A program made the position numbers and the translations under genes. A DNA stretch of 64,000 nucleotides from an uncultured Candidatus Poseidoniales archaeon (GTDB lineage Archaea > Thermoplasmatota > Poseidoniia > Poseidoniales > Poseidoniaceae). The DNA is taken from positions 1 through 64,000 of the forward strand of contig CAJJAP010000011.1 of assembly GCA_905182185.1 (NCBI GenBank), read 5' to 3'. The notes beneath the pieces were generated by a model. That model worked only from the letters and a program-made list of their open reading frames with translations, was not told the origin of the DNA and ran no database searches. Positions within the stretch are counted from its first letter, which is position 1; each line of letters opens with the position of its first letter. This document shows positions 7,121 through 52,836 of this stretch, in pieces.

Positions 7121-9688
7121 TTAATTTGTGCTAAATGATTGAGCATCGCTCCAATGATCTCCACTAGCACCTTCACCTAGTATTCTCCAATAATAAGTTG
7201 AAGATGTTGCTAATCCAGTTAGGTCTTTCTGCTCAGAACCTACTATTGCTAACCCTTGACTTGAGCAAGTTGTCCATGCGGATTTGGTTGTTGCACCATC
7301 AAATAATCCCCAACAAATAGTTTGGTTCACATCTGTACCATTATCATAATTATCCCACTGTAGGGTTGAGGAAGAAGATGTAATATTGCTTACAGAAAGA
7401 TTCTGTAAAATTGATGGGTAATCATGAACCCAACCTCTTAGTGGGTCGTTATTCCATACTGGTAAGTGGTCGACTGTAGCAAAGGTTGCATCATCTATTG
7501 GCAGACCCCATGCGCGTAAGAATGGAATCAAATTCATCCCCGTTTCATTGGAGATTCTAGCTGCCCAAGAGTTGTATTCTTGTGCATCATTTGTTGGCTG
7601 GGTTAGTGAACTATTGTAGTACTGACTAAAGGCAGATGTATAGACTTGCCAACCAAATTGTTCCTGAATCATCATGTGAGTCTCTAAGGCGGTCCAAACA
7701 CTCCATTGAGAGATTTGAGAACCTGCGTTAAAGTAAGTCTCCGTCCTTGTTTCGCGACTTGAATTACTCATCGCACCATGGCCTGCACCCAAATCAACCC
7801 CTACTAATTCGGTCATGATATAGGCTGAGAAAAGATTGCAAGTGGTTTCAGTATTACCTGGTAATGTTGCTGACATCCATTGATGATTATGCCCCAATTC
7901 ATGGAACATTCCCCAATCTCCTTGGGTTGACATATGACTTAGATTCACTACGTTTGCAACACTTACTGTATGGGCCATAAATGGGTAACCAGAGTGCATC
8001 CAACCAGCACTGATTTGAATATCAAAGACTGCTCGTTCAACTCTAGTCCAAGGAAGATAACCGCTTAGGTTGTGCTCCATCTGCAATGCAGTATCCCACC
8101 AATTCATCAGTTCAGCAGTATTGTCAAGGTTTCTAATTTCAGAAGATGGGACTGTTAGAATAAAGAATTGACCTTCTATTTCAGCCCAAGGTGCAGGATA
8201 ATTTTTCTCAGTATTATTCCACTGCTGAGCAGTGGTAACTCCCGCGATATAACGAGGTGATTGTACTGCATTTTCAATTGTAATATTAGTCATCCCGAAA
8301 GTGGAATCTGGTGGAAATGTTATGTAAATTAGTCCACCAAAGGTGTTGCCAACTTGCATATTTGTAGAATCGATTACCCAGATCCGATGCACCTTTGGAT
8401 GCCTGTCAAGTTTGTCTTTATTCCATAATGAATCTGAATGTGCGCCGATTTGAATACGGACATTTTGATCTACAATGGAGAGTGGAACTGTAATATTTAC
8501 CACTTCACCAGCAGCAGCGTATAGCCCAGTTCCCATCATGCCATGGCTCCTCGCTCCCGCATAGCCAAAGCCGCTTGGTAAGCCAATATAGTTGCCATTA
8601 ACTGTGACATTGAGACTTACTCTCGGCGCATTAGTGGGCACCGCTCCAGGGAAATCCGAAGAACTTGGGTGGGCGCTTAATTGATTTGCTGGAAGACGTA
8701 GATACAATCCTTCTTCTATCGCAAGTAGAACGTCATCAATAGGGTCGGCACCTAAATCATACTCGTTATTATCTGAGATTTGAGTCCAGCCTGTGGAGTT
8801 TACCATCTCGCGTAGTGGAGTCCAGAAATTATTGAAATCAAGGGTAAGCATTGCTGTGCTACGCGATATCGTTTTCTCGATAGTCGGCGCATCTGATGTA
8901 GCGATTAGTGGTCCTGTTGTGAAGTGATTCTGTAGTGCGGTAATGGCTGGGATAGTCCTCAGCATTCTATCCGGTGTTGAACCAAGTGCCACTTGCACTG
9001 AGCCAGAATGCGATGAAACGAATAGTCCTGTAGTCGGTGCGATTTTATTGCCCGGATAATTATGAGCAACATCTGAATTTGAATAAGACCAATACCAAGA
9101 ATGGCCGCCCAAAATCAAACCATGGCCTGATGTTAAGAAGGTCTCAATCTTCAAATTTTGAGCATCACTCCAGCCATTCCAAAACTCCCCTACATAGCAG
9201 TCTAAGCCTGCTAATTGGTCTGGAGTTACCGAGGTTAAGACTGTAAAACCTTCAGCCACTAATTCATCTTCAAAATGATTAAAGTCGCTCCATAATCCAA
9301 TTGTTCCGACTCCATCGCAAGCCCATTTCATTGCGTTTATTGAAAGTGTCATTTCTGGGCCACTGCTTTTAGCAACAAATGATTCGTGGCCATAACCAAC
9401 CACTCTGCCTTGCCCAGCATATGCTGCTGAAGCGATTGGTCGTTGGTCCCAATCAGAAAGAATTGGGAAGGACCATTGGCCAAATGGCAATATTAGAGAT
9501 GGCCAAGATGAGCCGTAATCTACTGATGTTACCCCGTCGGTTATCATTGACCAGTCTGTATCAAAATCATGAACTGTAATATTTATCTGTAGTTCAAAGG
9601 AACCGCCTGAATTATTAGCAAATATTGTGTAAGTAGTACGGGGTACACGGGTATCTGCAGTACCAAAGATTGTTCCCTCCGCTTGCAA
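7121..9688 (-). CDS. Surface protein with M60-like zinc metallopeptidase and fibronectin-III tail (C-terminal part of a frameshifted gene)
   Basis: Continuation of the Ig-repeat ORF at 9615-11132; together about 1340 residues. The true join is near 9680, where 'SGLTFASGG' passes into 'GTIFGTADTRV' after one extra base in a GGAGGGAA run, so the ATG at 9688 is not a real start. The middle holds the zinc motif HELGH (about residues 596-600 of this ORF) followed by a Glu in 'NTETTCN', matching the M60/enhancin consensus HExxH(8-28)E. Upstream, the GATase-like 'GYGHESFVA' and 'LILGGHSWYW' fit the accessory fold often found in M60-like proteins. The last ~90 residues resemble a fibronectin type III domain. 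M60 enzymes attack mucin-like glycoproteins, so a role on glycoprotein substrates outside the cell is inferred. Confidence 0.8.
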   Translation of the reverse strand: MQAEGTIFGTADTRVPRTTYTIFANNSGGSFELQINITVHDFDTDWSMITDGVTSVDYGSSWPSLILPFGQWSFPILSDWDQRPIASAAYAGQGRVVGYGHESFVAKSSGPEMTLSINAMKWACDGVGTIGLWSDFNHFEDELVAEGFTVLTSVTPDQLAGLDCYVGEFWNGWSDAQNLKIETFLTSGHGLILGGHSWYWSYSNSDVAHNYPGNKIAPTTGLFVSSHSGSVQVALGSTPDRMLRTIPAITALQNHFTTGPLIATSDAPTIEKTISRSTAMLTLDFNNFWTPLREMVNSTGWTQISDNNEYDLGADPIDDVLLAIEEGLYLRLPANQLSAHPSSSDFPGAVPTNAPRVSLNVTVNGNYIGLPSGFGYAGARSHGMMGTGLYAAAGEVVNITVPLSIVDQNVRIQIGAHSDSLWNKDKLDRHPKVHRIWVIDSTNMQVGNTFGGLIYITFPPDSTFGMTNITIENAVQSPRYIAGVTTAQQWNNTEKNYPAPWAEIEGQFFILTVPSSEIRNLDNTAELMNWWDTALQMEHNLSGYLPWTRVERAVFDIQISAGWMHSGYPFMAHTVSVANVVNLSHMSTQGDWGMFHELGHNHQWMSATLPGNTETTCNLFSAYIMTELVGVDLGAGHGAMSNSSRETRTETYFNAGSQISQWSVWTALETHMMIQEQFGWQVYTSAFSQYYNSSLTQPTNDAQEYNSWAARISNETGMNLIPFLRAWGLPIDDATFATVDHLPVWNNDPLRGWVHDYPSILQNLSVSNITSSSSTLQWDNYDNGTDVNQTICWGLFDGATTKSAWTTCSSQGLAIVGSEQKDLTGLATSSTYYWRILGEGASGDHWSDAQSFSTN

Positions 9689-44154: not shown

Positions 44155-44433
44155 TCATTCAAATAATTGGTCGAGTAGCCAGTTTGGTTCAAATTGTAAT
44201 AGGTCATCATAGCCTTGCCCAGTACCTACGAAAACGATAGGTCGGCCTGTTGCAAAAGCAATAGAAAGTCCTGCTCCGCCCTTGGCATCGGTATCCATTT
44301 TTGTTAATACTGCACCATCGAACTTCATTATTTCTTGGAACATCTTGGCTTGATCTACTGCATCATTACCCGCTAATGCATCGCCGACGAATAGAGTGAG
44401 ATGGGGGTTGGCAATCCTCCTAACTTTGTTCAA
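44155..44433 (-). CDS. ftsY: Signal recognition particle receptor FtsY, C-terminal part (after frame break)
   Basis: Continues FtsY after a single-base change at about 44428: 'MKEVEQS*' in the other frame resumes as 'NKVRRIANPHLTLFVGDALAGNDAV'. Carries the guanine-specificity motif 'VLTKMDTDAKGGAGLSIAF' (TKxD) and the ending 'VGTGQGYDDLLQFEPNWLLDQLF', which closes the GTPase domain. It is an essential gene, so the break is more likely an error in the sequence than a real mutation. Confidence 0.85.
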   Translation of the reverse strand: MNKVRRIANPHLTLFVGDALAGNDAVDQAKMFQEIMKFDGAVLTKMDTDAKGGAGLSIAFATGRPIVFVGTGQGYDDLLQFEPNWLLDQLFE

Positions 44434-45559
44434 CTTCTTTCATCAAATTTGTTTTATTGTGCATTCTTCCTGCTGTATCAACCAGTACAACGTCAATGTT
44501 TTTTGCCTTTGCAGATTCTATCGCGTCTCTGATAACCGCTGCAGCATCTCCACCGCGTTGGCTTGAGATACAACGAATTCCAAGGGTTTCACAATGAGAT
44601 TCAAGTTGTTGGATTGCTCCTGCTCTAAAGGTATCACCTGCTGCTGCAATGACTGAGAGTCCGCGTGACTGTAATCTGTGAGCAATCTTTGCTGCGGTGG
44701 TTGTTTTCCCCGTTCCATTTACTCCAACCATCATTATGACGACCGGTAAATCACCCTTATCAACATAGGATTGTACTGAGGCGTCGAAATCCCAATATCC
44801 GGCTGAAAGTAAGTTGCTTAGTGCCCGTTTAAGAGATGCTTCTAGAACCTTGGAAAGGTCTGCTCCCTTACGTAATCTTGCTCCGACCAATGTGTTACGC
44901 AGAGCATCTATTACGGCTGTAACCGCATCTGATGAAATATCAGACTCAAGTAATACCCATTCCAATTCCTCTAGTAGAGTGTCGAGGCCATCTCCTGCTT
45001 TGATCACTCTTCCACCTTGCTCAACTACACCGCCACCGAGCTCAACTTCGACCTTGCTACCAGCTTCTGTTTCAATCGTTGCTGATTTGGAAGAGCCTTT
45101 TGGTGCCGATTCAACGCTGACCAGTTTTCTTCCGGTCGTGGTTCGCATCATAGCCAAATCAACGCGTGAACCTTGTGGACGCGATTGTTCGACTCCCCCG
45201 CGCTTCTTTATTTCCTTTAAGCGGGCTTTTTCGGCTTTGTCATTAACCTTTTTTTCTCGCTCGAGTAATTTTCTTTGGGCCTTGGTCAATTCAACAGGTA
45301 AGGCAATCTCTTCTTCATCATCAAAGTCATCCCAGTCGTCATCTTCATCTGCTGCTTCACTCACAACTTCTTGGCCAAGGTCATCCCAGTCATCCTCTTG
45401 ATGAGTTATTACTTCTTCAACCGACTCCGGTTGTGTTGGCTGGATTGGTTGTTGTGCATTTTGCAGTGCTTGTTGTGCTTCAGCGGATTCTGCTTCAGCG
45501 GACAATGACTCCGTATCTGTAACTTCGGCTACTTTTCTGAATCTGTCAAATAATCCCAT
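44420..45559 (-). CDS. ftsY: Signal recognition particle receptor FtsY, N-terminal and GTPase core
   Basis: Membrane-side partner of SRP54 for co-translational targeting. Starts 'MGLFDRFRKVAEVTDTES', has a long acidic linker ('DDWDDLGQEVVSEAADEDDDW'), a four-helix N domain and G domain: P loop 'VGVNGTGKTTTAAKIA', 'AAAGDTFRAGAIQQL' and 'VVLVDTAGRMHN'. Typical archaeal FtsY is 300-400 residues; about 465 when joined to the C-terminal piece. Downstream in the rpl18a-pfdA-ftsY cluster with 9 bp spacing from pfdA. Confidence 0.93.
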   Translation of the reverse strand: MGLFDRFRKVAEVTDTESLSAEAESAEAQQALQNAQQPIQPTQPESVEEVITHQEDDWDDLGQEVVSEAADEDDDWDDFDDEEEIALPVELTKAQRKLLEREKKVNDKAEKARLKEIKKRGGVEQSRPQGSRVDLAMMRTTTGRKLVSVESAPKGSSKSATIETEAGSKVEVELGGGVVEQGGRVIKAGDGLDTLLEELEWVLLESDISSDAVTAVIDALRNTLVGARLRKGADLSKVLEASLKRALSNLLSAGYWDFDASVQSYVDKGDLPVVIMMVGVNGTGKTTTAAKIAHRLQSRGLSVIAAAGDTFRAGAIQQLESHCETLGIRCISSQRGGDAAAVIRDAIESAKAKNIDVVLVDTAGRMHNKTNLMKEVEQS

Positions 45560-47049: not shown

Positions 47050-49746
47050 ATGATGCGCAATTATTTTCTCAATTACTCGAGGTTGATGGTTTACTTTGGG
47101 TTGAGCCGGTGTTGGAGACAGTTTGCCCGTAATACCCAATCCGCATCTATTCATCAAAATGGAGGGCTTTCTGGAAATCCTGCTTGGGACCTGGGTTTGA
47201 ATGCAAGTGGCGTGGTCGTTGGAGTGGCTGATTCTGGCCTTGATGCTGATCATTCTTGTTTTAGAAATGCAACCGCGGTAGCACAGTTAGGATCTGAGGG
47301 TGAAAATGGAAGTGACGCTGAAGCCCCTGCTGGCCCCAACCATCGAAAACTGCTATTACTCAATGAAACAATAGATTCAGGAGATACTCAGGGGCATAGC
47401 GATTATCGACATGGAACCCATGTCGCTGGTACTTTGTCATGCTTTGACATCTATGATTATAGAAACGGGACCGTCCCCACTACGGGTTCTTCACTTGCCC
47501 ATGCTAGTTCTCTCATTTTCCAAGATATTGTATCGAGTGAGGGTTGGGTTGTTCCAGATGTGGATTTGTTATTGTATGAAGCGGCCATTAATGGCGCGGT
47601 AATTCACTCGGATTCTTGGGGCGATAATTCTGCCGAATATACCGCTCGGTCTGCTGATTTTGATGCGTGGGGCAGGGAATTCCCTTGGTCTCTTGCATTT
47701 ATCGCCCCAGGCAATAGTGGTGGTGAAATCTTAGAGCCTGCAAATGCCAGAAATGTTGCTGCGATTGGAGCTTCAATAAAAAATGACCAATCTCAACGTT
47801 GGGCCTCCAATGCTCACGGGCCATTGCAAGCGGAGACAACTGGTATTTTCGCACTCGCTACCGGAGCATCAATTTTATCGGCGAAGGCTGATGGTGTTGA
47901 TAATTCTTACAATGATGATCTACGCTCATCGAGTGGCACCAGTATGGCCACTCCGATGGCAGCGAGTAATGCTGCTGTAATACAGCAAATGGTTGAACAG
48001 GGTTGGATTCGCGGCTCTCAAGAAAATACTCATGATGTTTCTATTGCCCAATTACGGCCTCAATGGGCTGATAGTTCGCTCACTAACCAATCCAATTTGA
48101 CCTTGGGTGATGGTTTCACTCCATCCGGACCATTGTTACGGGCTTTGATGGCAATTGCAAGTACCCCTTTGCCATTGGATGAAAGAAACGCAGGAAATGG
48201 AGGAGAGGATCTAAGAAATCCATATGATGGGTTTGGTCGTCTAAATTTATCTCAATTAATTGATTTTGCACAATTAGAAAATATGATCTCCGAAGGTAAT
48301 GTTTCCCCTGCTAGTGATGTTTGGATTCACGACTCCTATCGTTTGCAGCAGTTGCAGCCTATGCATTTACTATCGCAACGAAATGGAAATCTTACGCCAT
48401 TAGAAAATTTAGCTAATAATCCATGGAATGGTGACGGTGCTGTTGGCCCATTCCTTACAAGTGGAGATGTTTGGACTACGCGACTTTCGATTGAGGAGGG
48501 GGAGCCATTGGATGTTACAATGGCGTTTCCTTCATCGCCCGAGCCTTATTTGGTCGATGATATGTTGCTGGTTGTACGGTTATCTAATGGTCAGGTCGCT
48601 ATCTCGGGCAAAACAAATTCTACTGGCGCCAATACCTTATTTTACGAAAACGTTGTTAATTACTCAAATAACAATTCATTCCCGTCGAGTAATGAAACAA
48701 CTTTGAAGATTCATTTGGATGCCATCGACATAAGTGAAATTGAATGGGTGGAAATTGAAGTTAGGGCCCGCTATATCTCACCTGGAAACTCTCCCGGAAC
48801 CGTCGGTATTGATGGCGATAAAAATGGATTTTCTATTGCTGCTAAAGGTGTGCAACGCGATTACGATGGATGGATGGATAGTGATGGAGATGGTATTGAA
48901 AATGTATTGGATGTCTGTCCAATTGAAGATGCAAGTGGTTATGATTTAGATTTGGATGGCTGTATTGATGATTCGGATGGAGACACAATAACCGATGATA
49001 TCGATGAGTGTGTGGCTGAAGATGCAAGTGGTTATGATTTAGATTTGGATGGCTGTATTGATGATTCAGATGCTGATTCAGTCAAAGACGATGTAGACCT
49101 TTGTTATACAGAAATAATCAACAGCAGTTGGCCAGTAATGGAAAATGGCTGTAGGCCAATAGATAATACTCCACAGATTACTATAATTTCGGAACCAGGA
49201 AATGGCACTGTTTGGGATGATACTATGTTAGTTCGATGGCTAGTAGAAGATAGTGATGGCGACCAATTGACAACTGGCGTCAAAATAATGATCGCACATA
49301 ATAATTCAAATGAAAGTTCTTCGGAATTGATTCGTTGTGTCCCGATACAATGGGCCAATAATTCAAGTGAGTTCTTTTGTATTTGGGTAATTCCAATCAA
49401 CCTCCCATCATACGATATTAATGAGCGCCCATTGCACCTGGAATTCTTTGTACAAAGTTCAAACCAATCTCCAGAAGCAAATAATCAATTAATAACAAAA
49501 AGCAGTCAAAATATATTCACTTCATTCTGGGATAATTCATCAATAGGCGAGGATAATTCTTTAATTGAAAATAATGAAGAAATTGACAAACAAAAGAGAA
49601 TTCTAATGTTGGCAATTATGGGGTTATTTGGTGCGTTGGTTGGCGCGATACTGGTCGCTAAGAAATTTCTGTGGCGTGATTTCAACGAGGTCGTTTTCGA
49701 TATAAATGAGAAGTTACTACCTCCTATTGAAAGTGATAGGGATTAG
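47050..49746 (+). CDS. S8 (subtilisin-like) serine peptidase with thrombospondin type 3 repeats and membrane anchor
   Basis: Extracellular serine protease. Catalytic triad: Asp in 'VGVADSGLDADH', His in 'YRHGTHVAGTLS', Ser in 'SSGTSMATPMAASNA'; oxyanion Asn in 'IAPGNSGGE'. Beyond residue ~400 there is a P-domain-like beta region, then calcium-binding TSP3 repeats ('MDSDGDGIENVLDVCP', 'DLDLDGCIDDSDGD', 'SDADSVKDDVDLC'), a C-terminal transmembrane helix ('LMLAIMGLFGALVGAILVA') and a short cytoplasmic tail. The real protein begins at the signal peptide at 46578; the ORF start 47050 is artificial. Likely digests proteins for import as peptides. Confidence 0.88.
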   Translation: MMRNYFLNYSRLMVYFGLSRCWRQFARNTQSASIHQNGGLSGNPAWDLGLNASGVVVGVADSGLDADHSCFRNATAVAQLGSEGENGSDAEAPAGPNHRKLLLLNETIDSGDTQGHSDYRHGTHVAGTLSCFDIYDYRNGTVPTTGSSLAHASSLIFQDIVSSEGWVVPDVDLLLYEAAINGAVIHSDSWGDNSAEYTARSADFDAWGREFPWSLAFIAPGNSGGEILEPANARNVAAIGASIKNDQSQRWASNAHGPLQAETTGIFALATGASILSAKADGVDNSYNDDLRSSSGTSMATPMAASNAAVIQQMVEQGWIRGSQENTHDVSIAQLRPQWADSSLTNQSNLTLGDGFTPSGPLLRALMAIASTPLPLDERNAGNGGEDLRNPYDGFGRLNLSQLIDFAQLENMISEGNVSPASDVWIHDSYRLQQLQPMHLLSQRNGNLTPLENLANNPWNGDGAVGPFLTSGDVWTTRLSIEEGEPLDVTMAFPSSPEPYLVDDMLLVVRLSNGQVAISGKTNSTGANTLFYENVVNYSNNNSFPSSNETTLKIHLDAIDISEIEWVEIEVRARYISPGNSPGTVGIDGDKNGFSIAAKGVQRDYDGWMDSDGDGIENVLDVCPIEDASGYDLDLDGCIDDSDGDTITDDIDECVAEDASGYDLDLDGCIDDSDADSVKDDVDLCYTEIINSSWPVMENGCRPIDNTPQITIISEPGNGTVWDDTMLVRWLVEDSDGDQLTTGVKIMIAHNNSNESSSELIRCVPIQWANNSSEFFCIWVIPINLPSYDINERPLHLEFFVQSSNQSPEANNQLITKSSQNIFTSFWDNSSIGEDNSLIENNEEIDKQKRILMLAIMGLFGALVGAILVAKKFLWRDFNEVVFDINEKLLPPIESDRD
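48925..49067 (+). repeat. 50-bp direct duplication in TSP3 region
   Basis: Identical 50-bp stretches at 48925-48974 and 49018-49067, 93 bp apart, begin 'gaagatgcaagtggttatga'. Both encode 'EDASGYDLDLDGCIDDS' of the calcium-binding TSP3 units of the S8 peptidase. The nucleotide identity points to recent unit duplication. Confidence 0.85.
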
Positions 49747-49877: not shown

Positions 49878-50882
49878 ATGGGAGAAAGACTCTACGTAGG
49901 AATCGATTTGGGAACATACCAATCAACAATCGCGTCAAGTGCTGGTGCAAGCCACACAATTGAAACTGTTGTTGGACGACCGAAAGACCCTATTGCTCGT
50001 AACTTCCTCGGGCGAGATGTTCTTTTTGGCAATGATGCTTTGAAGAACAAGTTGGCATGTAATATATACCGCCCAATGGCTGCTGGAGTTGCTCTAGATG
50101 ATGATGCAAACCTTGCTGCTGCAAAGGCGTTTGTTTCTCACCTATTGGAAACTGTAGACCCTGAAGAATTCGATGAGGTTTTCGGAGTAATTTGCTCACC
50201 ATCTCACGTTTCATTCACTGACAAGTCCAACCTAGTAGCAACACTTCGTGGACAAGTTAATGCCATCATGGTAGTGACTGAACCATTCGCTACAGCATTC
50301 GGAATTGAAGAAATCGCTAGTTCAATCGTAGTAGATATTGGCGCTGGAACAACTGATATTGCTCGTATTTACGGAACATTCCCAACCGAAGAAGACCAAA
50401 TTACTCTTCAAGAAGCTGGAGATTGGTTGGATGAGGCACTAATGGTCTTAATCCGAAAGAAGTACACTGGCGCTCAAGTAACCAAGGATATGGTTCGCCG
50501 ATGGAAGGAAGAAGTTTCCTATGTAGGCGGGGATACTCGTGAAGCAATTGTTGAACTTTCAGTTGAAGGTAAGAAGCAAGTGGTTGACATTGGAGACCTA
50601 GTTCAAGAAGCATGTGAAGCAATTATTCCAAAGATTGGAAACGGTATCAAGCAAATCATTGCTGGTGCTGACCCTGAATATCAACCAGTTCTTCGTAACA
50701 ATGTCATCATCTCTGGTGGCGGCTCTCTAATCGAAGGATTAGCGGCTCGTATTGCCGACGAAATCTCCGATATCGGTGATGTAAATGTCTGGTGTGTTGA
50801 AGATCCAATTGACAAGGTTGCTACTGGTGCTTTAGCACTAGCTCAGCAAATGCCTGATGAAATGTTCACATCAATCAACTAA
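49878..50882 (+). CDS. Actin/MreB-like ATPase
   Basis: 334-residue actin-superfamily protein. Phosphate-1 'VGIDLGTYQSTIAS', phosphate-2 'VVDIGAGTTDIARI' and adenosine motif 'ISGGGSLIEGLAARI' are all present, with the MreB/MamK-like 'VICSPSHVSF' and 'VVTEPFATAFG'. Likely polymerises as a cytoskeletal filament. GGAAGGTGA lies 5 nt before the ATG at 49878; the track start is 18 codons earlier. First gene of a plus-strand operon with the coiled-coil protein (102 bp gap) and DUF4126. Confidence 0.85.
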   Translation: MGERLYVGIDLGTYQSTIASSAGASHTIETVVGRPKDPIARNFLGRDVLFGNDALKNKLACNIYRPMAAGVALDDDANLAAAKAFVSHLLETVDPEEFDEVFGVICSPSHVSFTDKSNLVATLRGQVNAIMVVTEPFATAFGIEEIASSIVVDIGAGTTDIARIYGTFPTEEDQITLQEAGDWLDEALMVLIRKKYTGAQVTKDMVRRWKEEVSYVGGDTREAIVELSVEGKKQVVDIGDLVQEACEAIIPKIGNGIKQIIAGADPEYQPVLRNNVIISGGGSLIEGLAARIADEISDIGDVNVWCVEDPIDKVATGALALAQQMPDEMFTSIN

Positions 50883-50984
50883 ATTTGATAGTTTGAATAT
50901 TTCTAAAGGGGTGCCAAACCCCCCTTCTAATACCCGTTTCTATTGGCAAAGTTCAAGAGTGGTTGAGCGGCGATTGCCCATTGT

Positions 50985-52250
50985 ATGACGCTAGGAACTT
51001 CAACAACGGGTGGCATCGGACGAATCAGTGATGCTTCGGGAGATGAACGAGCGGTGCTCGAAGGTATGCTTCGCGGCTATCCTCAAGACCAATTAGTAGA
51101 AGAGGTTCTCATCGCTTGGCAAGAACTTGCTGGGCGCAATGATGAACTGGTTTCAGTAAAGCAAAGAATTCGTGTATTAGAACTTGATTTGGCTGAAAGA
51201 GAAGATTTGGTTGCACCTGAAGTTGCACGACTAAATGAGGCCGAGTCCACTCTTCAAGAATTTGAAGCAAAGAATGTTCACCTATCACGGGTGCTCGCTG
51301 ACACCCAAGCAGAATTAGCAAGTCAGCAATCTTCACTTTCACAGAAGGAAAGAGAATCCATGGAAACCGAAGTTAGTCAATTACGAAACTTGTCAAATGA
51401 CCAAGACGAGGTTATCGGTGAAATGGAGGGGCGCATTTCTCAAATGATTGAGGCTTTGGAAAGAGCTGCTGAGGCTGGATTAACTTCAGTGACTGCGGAC
51501 GAAGTTCGTTCATTGAAATCACAACTAGATGATATGTCAGGAAAATATGGCGTGGAGACTGCTGCAAACTCGGCTCTAGAAGAAGAACGTCAACGTCTAC
51601 GAGATATTGCAGATCGCTTGCGCGGATTACTCGATGCTAGAGATTCGAGATTGGCTGAATTGGAAGAACAACTTGAGAGAGTAATGCAAGGTCCTCGTTC
51701 GGTTTCTGCTGAACATGATTATCTGGTCGAACAAATTGAAGAATTGAAAAGAAGATTATTGGAGAGAAACCGAGAATATGAATCTTTGAGAAGAAGAGAG
51801 CGTCGCCTCCATAGTGATGTTTTTGACAGAGATGAAAGAATCCAGCAAATGACTTTGACGATTGCAGACTTTGAGGCTGCACTTGGCGACCGTACTGCAG
51901 AATACAGAGAATTGGAAACACAGAACGAGGCTATGAGGGCTGAACTTGATTCGGTCAAACGTGGCGAACGCACTAGAGAAGTTGTTGGGCGGGTTTTCGC
52001 AGACTCCCTCACACTCGTTCGTGAACAAGATTCACGCGATGCTAAGCGAGAGGTGTATGCTAATTCACCGAATGTTGAAAGAAAACTATCAACTCCTGAA
52101 ACTGATGATATGGCACACCTTGCAAAGGGTGGACGCGTTGAACTTGATGTCGATGAAACTGTAATCGAAGAGGGGATCGATGTTGATGGCCCTCGCCCTC
52201 CTAGCCCTGGTGGTTCAGGAGACCCTGTTCTCTACGAGGACGAGGATTGA
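50985..52250 (+). CDS. Long coiled-coil protein
   Basis: 421 residues, almost entirely alpha-helical coiled coil from residue ~45 to ~345 ('LEEERQRLRDIADRLRGLLDARDSRLAELEEQLERV'), with a disordered acidic, Pro-rich C terminus ('GPRPPSPGGSGDP'). A short globular N terminus ('DERAVLEGMLRGYPQDQLVEEVLIAWQELAG') may bind a partner. No enzyme motif. Position directly after the actin-like gene and 1 nt before the DUF4126 gene suggests it scaffolds or links the filament. Confidence 0.8.
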   Translation: MTLGTSTTGGIGRISDASGDERAVLEGMLRGYPQDQLVEEVLIAWQELAGRNDELVSVKQRIRVLELDLAEREDLVAPEVARLNEAESTLQEFEAKNVHLSRVLADTQAELASQQSSLSQKERESMETEVSQLRNLSNDQDEVIGEMEGRISQMIEALERAAEAGLTSVTADEVRSLKSQLDDMSGKYGVETAANSALEEERQRLRDIADRLRGLLDARDSRLAELEEQLERVMQGPRSVSAEHDYLVEQIEELKRRLLERNREYESLRRRERRLHSDVFDRDERIQQMTLTIADFEAALGDRTAEYRELETQNEAMRAELDSVKRGERTREVVGRVFADSLTLVREQDSRDAKREVYANSPNVERKLSTPETDDMAHLAKGGRVELDVDETVIEEGIDVDGPRPPSPGGSGDPVLYEDED

Positions 52251-52251
52251 G

Positions 52252-52836
52252 ATGGAATTTCTGTCTTTGATCTCTGCGATTAGTGTTGGAATTGGTTTGT
52301 CTGCTGCCTGCGGATTCCGTATTTTTTTACCTCCAGCGATGATGAGTCTTGCTGCTAATCTCGATTGGATGGAATTAGATGGTCAATTTGCAATGTTAGA
52401 CAGTTGGGGGGCCTTTGCCATTTTATCTGCAGCGGTTGCATTTGAAATCGGTGGTTACTTCATTCCGTGGATTGATAATTTACTAGATATTGTTGCCACT
52501 CCTGCTGCCGCTCTTGCTGGTGTTTTTGTTTCTGCATCGATGCTTGGTGACTTTGACCCGATGCTACAATGGGCTGTTGCTCTAATCGCAGGAGGTGGTG
52601 CTGCAGGTACTGTGCAAATAGGAACAGTTGCTACCAGAGCAGCATCGACTGGAACAACTGGTGGCCTAGCCAATCCGCTAATTGCAGTCTTTGAAGCGAT
52701 AGCGGCCGTAGTTCTGACGATACTTGCATTATTATCTCCAATAATAGTGATGATTGCACTTATTGTAATGTTCTATTTTTTATTCAAAACGATTGGTAAT
52801 TTGAAACAGAGAAAGGCTAAAACTCCGGCCGTGTAA
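52252..52836 (+). CDS. DUF4126-family membrane protein
   Basis: 194 residues, about five transmembrane helices. 'LSLISAISVGIGLSAACGFRIFLPPAMMSLAANL' and 'IPWIDNLLDIVATPAAALAGVF' are the DUF4126 pattern; Gly/Ala-rich middle ('GGGAAGTVQIGTVATRAASTGTTGGL'). Function unknown. The ATG is 1 nt after the coiled-coil stop (TGAGATG), so translation is probably coupled. It could anchor the actin-like/coiled-coil system at the membrane, by context only. Confidence 0.82.
   Translation: MEFLSLISAISVGIGLSAACGFRIFLPPAMMSLAANLDWMELDGQFAMLDSWGAFAILSAAVAFEIGGYFIPWIDNLLDIVATPAAALAGVFVSASMLGDFDPMLQWAVALIAGGGAAGTVQIGTVATRAASTGTTGGLANPLIAVFEAIAAVVLTILALLSPIIVMIALIVMFYFLFKTIGNLKQRKAKTPAV

What the first reader, a model, noticed from the sequence alone, without database searches (positions are those of the whole stretch)
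49878..52836. Actin-like ATPase, long coiled-coil protein and DUF4126 membrane protein in one operon
Three plus-strand genes with spacings of 102 and 1 bp pair an MreB/MamK-like actin, a 300-residue coiled coil and a membrane protein of unknown function, after a poly-T terminator. Filament plus linker plus membrane anchor is the logic of known cell-shape or positioning systems, but this combination is not one I recognise. It may define a cytoskeletal module in a wall-less marine archaeon.
Basis: partly seen in the sequence, partly recalled or inferred. Interest (0 to 1): 0.72.

Follow-up and report, generated by a model that had tools for sequence, protein, structure and literature searches.

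The report
MamK-like archaeal actin with coiled-coil partner
A very abundant group of ocean archaea carries an actin-like filament protein related to the one that lines up magnetic organelles in bacteria, paired with a dedicated rod-shaped partner that is cut short in the lineage that lost the actin, which points to a so far unnoticed internal scaffold in these cells.

Summary
The three genes are real and at the stated coordinates. The host is a Marine Group II (Poseidoniaceae) archaeon. The first gene encodes an actin-fold ATPase closest to bacterial MamK (36% identity; its model matches the MamK filament subunit at TM 0.94), not to MreB or crenactin.

The module is actin plus coiled coil, not the triplet. 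The coiled coil lies downstream of the actin in all 80 relatives fetched, and both are kept when unlinked in one genus. DUF4126 follows in only 18 of 73 loci and is incidental.

One clade of the sister family has lost the actin. There the same chromosomal slot holds a coiled coil cut to residues ~20-161. The rest, including a hyper-conserved rod and a C-terminal PGG motif (86/86), survives only with the actin. I infer an adaptor: the C-terminal two-thirds serve the actin, the N-terminal third has an actin-independent target.

A second actin paralogue has its own zinc-ribbon partner, present and absent together with it.

An archaellum link was tested and rejected; a cell-shape role looks unlikely. 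Best guess: a MamK-like positioning filament. Polymerisation, binding and cargo are untested. I found no publication describing it.

The parts
49878..50882 (+). Actin A: MamK-like actin-fold ATPase, 334 aa
   Evidence: NCBIfam MamK 338 bits (curated cut-off 400), PDB MamK 5jyg E 3.5e-67, model vs 5ljv TM 0.94
50985..52250 (+). Coiled-coil partner, 421 aa
   Evidence: Downstream of the actin in 80/80 fetched relatives; three long predicted helices
51048..51467 (+). N-terminal module of the coiled coil (residues 22-161), kept in actin-less relatives
   Evidence: Truncated 152-183 aa orthologues in the same slot align here and end here
51684..51857 (+). Hyper-conserved rod (residues 234-291), found only with the actin
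   Evidence: Majority fraction 0.91 across the order, highest of the protein
52191..52247 (+). C-terminal PGG motif tail (residues 403-421)
   Evidence: PGG in the last 28 aa of 86/86 distinct full-length orthologues after a variable linker; absent from truncated forms
52252..52836 (+). DUF4126 membrane protein, 194 aa: neighbour, probably not part of the module
   Evidence: Pfam 7.9e-44; present in only 18/73 loci
47050..49746 (+). S8 subtilase with C-terminal hydrophobic stretch, neighbour upstream; absent from the slot in actin-less relatives
   Evidence: Peptidase_S8 5.5e-19

Best explanation
Actin A and the coiled coil form a two-component cytoskeletal module of Poseidoniales. Shown by sequence: the actin is a MamK-like actin-fold ATPase, the coiled coil is its conserved companion, and the coiled coil's distal two-thirds persist only where the actin persists. 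Inferred: actin A polymerises into MamK-like filaments. The coiled coil is a long rod that engages the filament through its C-terminal part (hyper-conserved helix and/or PGG tail) and contacts something else through its N-terminal module, which also works without actin. The most likely use is positioning or tethering of an internal structure, as MamK does with its adaptors, rather than wall-directed shape control. My estimates: functional coupling 0.85, polymerisation 0.85, tether/positioning role 0.45. The cargo is unknown.
For: MamK is the best family, sequence and fold match. Actin and coiled coil share the same genera over 244 genomes, stay together in 80/80 fetched loci, and are both kept when separated in genus g9 or by inserted genes. 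Where the actin is gone, the coiled coil at the same locus is cut to residues ~20-161, the end of the first predicted helix. Because the retained N-terminal part lies between the lost actin and the lost distal part, one contiguous deletion cannot explain it. Strong purifying selection. The catalytic-cleft glutamate and aspartate aligned to MamK are kept (E135 invariant, D153 nearly so). Precedents: MamK with coiled-coil adaptors (PMC12748827) and crenactin with arcadin-2, bound through a conserved C-terminus after a variable linker (PMC5173319).
Against: No biochemical evidence. The loss of the actin is one event (actin-less genera form one clade), so co-loss has little statistical weight. AlphaFold2 of the joined chain did not order the C-terminal tail (pLDDT about 40 alone and joined), so binding by the tail is unsupported. 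No cargo or organelle is known in these cells. The sampled genomes are incomplete.
Confidence: 0.5

Rival explanations
1. The coiled coil regulates actin dynamics (sequestering, capping or crosslinking, like arcadin-2 on crenactin) instead of tethering cargo.
For: Same layout as arcadin-2: conserved C-terminal peptide after a variable linker, encoded beside the actin (PMC5173319).
Against: The N-terminal module survives without any actin, and the best-conserved part is a long rod, not only the tail.
Confidence: 0.25
2. A cell-shape or envelope-organising cytoskeleton, MreB-like in role.
For: MreB is the next Pfam family; neighbours encode exported proteins.
Against: MreB scores far below its cut-offs (82 of 293 bits). 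No MreC/MreD/RodZ partner seen beside it. Both families are reported as similar cocci of about 0.7 um (PMC6864105). The DUF4126 anchor is not conserved.
Confidence: 0.12
3. DNA or plasmid segregation, ParM/Alp-like.
For: Other actin-like proteins with a small dedicated adaptor do this (established knowledge of ParM-ParR).
Against: ParM and Alp models match at noise level. No plasmid or phage homologue at 1e-8. Chromosomal locus with conserved housekeeping neighbours. No DNA-binding domain found in the partner.
Confidence: 0.08
4. Placement or assembly of the archaellum.
For: All Poseidoniaceae genera, plus g15 and g19, have both. The second actin's partner has a weak domain match to a small protein encoded near archaellin genes.
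Against: Genera g17 and g22 have the actin and no archaellin; g14 and g21 have archaellin and no actin.
Confidence: 0.05

Closest known systems
MamK of magnetotactic bacteria with its adaptors (McaA/McaB; Mad coiled-coil network, PMC12748827)
   Same: Closest actin by sequence and fold; actin working with coiled-coil partners; two actin paralogues also occur there (MamK with Mad28 or MamK-like)
   Different: 36% identity, below the curated MamK cut-off; no magnetosome genes seen beside it; the coiled coil is unrelated in sequence by the family searches; archaeal host
Crenactin with arcadins (PMC5173319)
   Same: Archaeal actin encoded beside a partner with a conserved C-terminal peptide after a variable linker
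   Different: A different actin branch; the partner here is a 320-residue rod with an actin-independent N-terminal module
BeeR (bacterial actin, 8r2n)
   Same: Second-best family and fold match
   Different: 214 bits against a cut-off of 530; about 32% identity
MreB
   Same: Actin fold; next family in rank
   Different: 82 bits against a cut-off of 293; no Mre partners seen
Salactin and Ta0583 (other euryarchaeal actin-like proteins)
   Same: Actin-fold proteins of Euryarchaeota
   Different: Salactin scores only 27 bits (cut-off 400); Ta0583 is recalled from memory and was not tested

Membership tests
MamK | Score above the curated NCBIfam cut-off (400 bits) | tested here: not met
   337.9 bits
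MamK | Closest actin by sequence and fold is MamK | tested here: met
   Best in NCBIfam, PDB sequence search and Foldseek
MamK | Encoded in a magnetosome gene cluster | tested here: not met
   Neighbours are FtsY, prefoldin, L18a, S8 protease, PcrB and a beta-CASP nuclease; the rest of the genome was not searched for mam genes
MamK | Assembles into parallel double filaments | not testable with these tools
   Fold match only
MreB | Score above the curated MreB cut-off | tested here: not met
   82.5 of 293 and 74.3 of 365.75 bits
BeeR | Score above the BeeR cut-off (530 bits) | tested here: not met
   214.2 bits
ParM/Alp segregation systems | ParM-type actin on a mobile element with a DNA-binding adaptor | tested here: not met
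   ParM models at noise level; no plasmid or phage hit
Crenactin/arcadin cluster | Crenactin-type actin with arcadins 1-4 | tested here: inconclusive
   No crenactin chain among the 60 PDB matches shown, but crenactin was not compared directly; arcadins not searched
DUF4126 as part of the module | Conserved adjacency | tested here: not met
   18 of 73 loci

The most novel reading that the evidence does not exclude
Poseidoniales ancestrally had a two-actin, two-partner cytoskeleton: actin A with the coiled coil, and actin B (with an acidic or amide residue at the site where A278D blocks MamK assembly, so perhaps a capping or co-polymer subunit) with a zinc-ribbon partner. It would be an archaeal MamK-type positioning machine for an unseen intracellular structure, lost in one clade with smaller genomes where only the coiled coil's N-terminal module survives.
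Probability: 0.3. Interest if true: 0.8.

Novelty: new variant of a known kind. Interest (0 to 1): 0.6.

Why it matters
Marine Group II archaea are among the most abundant archaea of the surface ocean, they are uncultured, and no cytoskeleton of theirs turned up in the papers searched. A MamK-like filament protein with a dedicated partner, traced through a natural loss that also trims the partner, gives concrete proteins and domain boundaries to test. It also extends the MamK-like branch of actins to planktonic archaea with no sign of magnetosomes at the locus.

Tried and rejected
Archaellum link: FlaD/E (PF04659) found nothing in the order while ringing in controls; archaellin (PF01917) is discordant with the actin in genera g14, g17, g21 and g22. 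DUF4126 as anchor: rejected. Mobile-element origin: no plasmid or phage homologue. Tail docking on the actin by AlphaFold2 of the joined chain (actin and coiled coil are in one frame, read through the stops): no gain in tail confidence (against 61), so no support. Family hits of the coiled coil (SMC, Rad50, crescentin) are all far below cut-off and treated as generic coil similarity. Actin tree: A and B are each one group (98/99), but MamK, BeeR and MreB sit on long branches, so root and donor lineage are unresolved.

Full report
Observation. The three + strand genes exist at 49878-50882, 50985-52250 and 52252-52836, with gaps of 102 and 1 nt. All are under strong purifying selection (whole-gene dN/dS 0.04-0.09). 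The closest relatives are Poseidoniaceae (Marine Group IIa) genomes. The locus sits between housekeeping genes (ftsY, prefoldin, L18a upstream; in relatives PcrB and a beta-CASP nuclease downstream) and genes for exported proteins (S8 protease upstream, 1406-aa CARDB protein downstream in the window).

The actin. NCBIfam ranks MamK first (338 bits, below its 400 cut-off), then BeeR (214), MreB (82) and salactin (27). The PDB sequence search gives MamK 5jyg at 3.5e-67, or 9e-89 with a family profile. Foldseek of the model gives the MamK filament subunit 5ljv at TMt 0.94 and 36% identity. A second paralogue (B, about 47% identity) is present in most genomes at another locus. A and B are separate groups (98/99). 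In the phylum sample only one genome outside Poseidoniales (G309, on a contig whose neighbours look archaeal) had a relative at E<=1e-20. No other class member had one, which suggests acquisition at or near the base of the order; the donor is unresolved (inference).

The partner. In all 80 fetched relatives the coiled coil lies downstream of the actin; L081 has a 2.3 kb gap between them. A few genomes show one without the other, mostly as partial hits; most of these look like incomplete assemblies, but I did not check each one. In genus g9 the two are unlinked, 63 kb apart or on different contigs, yet both are kept; elsewhere one to four ORFs are inserted between them. DUF4126 follows in 18 of 73 loci. 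Of 76 other genomes of the phylum only one gave a match to the coiled coil, a weak partial one (E 6.6e-5).

The natural truncation. In the actin-less genera read here (g13, g16, g18, g20) the same slot, with the same flanking genes, lacks the protease and the actin. It holds a 152-183 aa coiled coil that aligns to P0002 residues ~20-161 and ends there in every case. That is the end of the first predicted long helix, 34-163. The missing part contains the best-conserved segment of the protein (234-291, majority fraction 0.91) and the C-terminal PGG motif found in 86/86 distinct full-length orthologues. A tree of two flanking proteins puts the actin-less genera in one clade (99.3/91), so this is one historical event. 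Because the retained N-terminal part lies between the lost actin and the lost distal part, a single contiguous deletion cannot produce it. I read this as loss of need for the distal part once the actin was gone.

The second module. Actin B is adjacent to a 358-aa zinc-ribbon protein in 13/13 loci. That protein is present in all seven tested genomes with B, absent in 17/17 actin-less genomes, and absent (beyond a weak partial match) in G066, which has A but no B. At the residue aligned to MamK A278, whose A278D mutant is described as non-polymerising (title of 5ljw), B has D, N or E in 10/10 sequences and A mostly P. This hints, no more, at different assembly behaviour.

Function. An archaellum role was the first testable idea, and it failed on discordant genera. 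Shape control is disfavoured: microscopy in PMC6864105 reports small cocci of about 0.7 um and similar morphology for both families, although which genera were seen is not resolved. The actin distribution resembles the published distribution of algal oligosaccharide degradation (PMC6336850), but I could not map genus labels to those subclades with certainty, and larger genomes share many traits. The best-supported reading is a MamK-like filament with a rod adaptor whose C-terminal part serves the actin and whose N-terminal module has another target. Arcadin-2/crenactin (PMC5173319) and the MamK-Mad coiled-coil network (PMC12748827) are precedents for the logic, not proof of membership. A joined actin+coil model gave no ordering of the tail, so the binding site is open.

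Novelty. Searches of the open-access library for Marine Group II or Poseidoniales with actin, MreB, MamK or cytoskeleton found no description; subscription papers were not searched. I file it as a new variant of a known kind: a MamK-like archaeal actin clade with partner families that I did not find described.

Limits. Genome incompleteness affects presence/absence counts. The loss is a single event. There is no biochemical evidence. Family and genus labels (f1, g15 and so on) are the search tool's.

Noticed in passing
44158-45559 (-): ftsY (SRP receptor) is split by a frameshift near 44430: the first 384 residues read in one frame and the last 93 in another, probably an assembly or sequencing error in this MAG.
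   Followed up: partly
L140:8603-9679 (-) and 12 further loci: A 358-aa zinc-ribbon protein is the constant neighbour of the second actin paralogue, and is present and absent with it.
   Followed up: yes
L198:5758-6198 (+): A small 146-aa protein beside the archaellin cluster weakly matches residues 276-320 of that zinc-ribbon protein (E 1.8e-4); similar hits lie near archaellin genes in G022 and G015.
   Followed up: partly
L194:9128-10225 (+): A lone MamK-like actin (43% identical to MamK) in a 5 Mb Thermoplasmatota genome of another family, followed by an uncharacterised 618-aa protein without Pfam match.
   Followed up: partly
L139 (G002 genome), 1175450-1176444 (-) in the chromosome: In the single-contig Marine Group II genome G002 the second actin paralogue is split into two pieces, a possible frameshift or pseudogene.
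   Followed up: no
7121-9688 (-): 855-aa protein with a Peptidase_M60 (enhancin-like) domain, E 2.5e-58.
   Followed up: no
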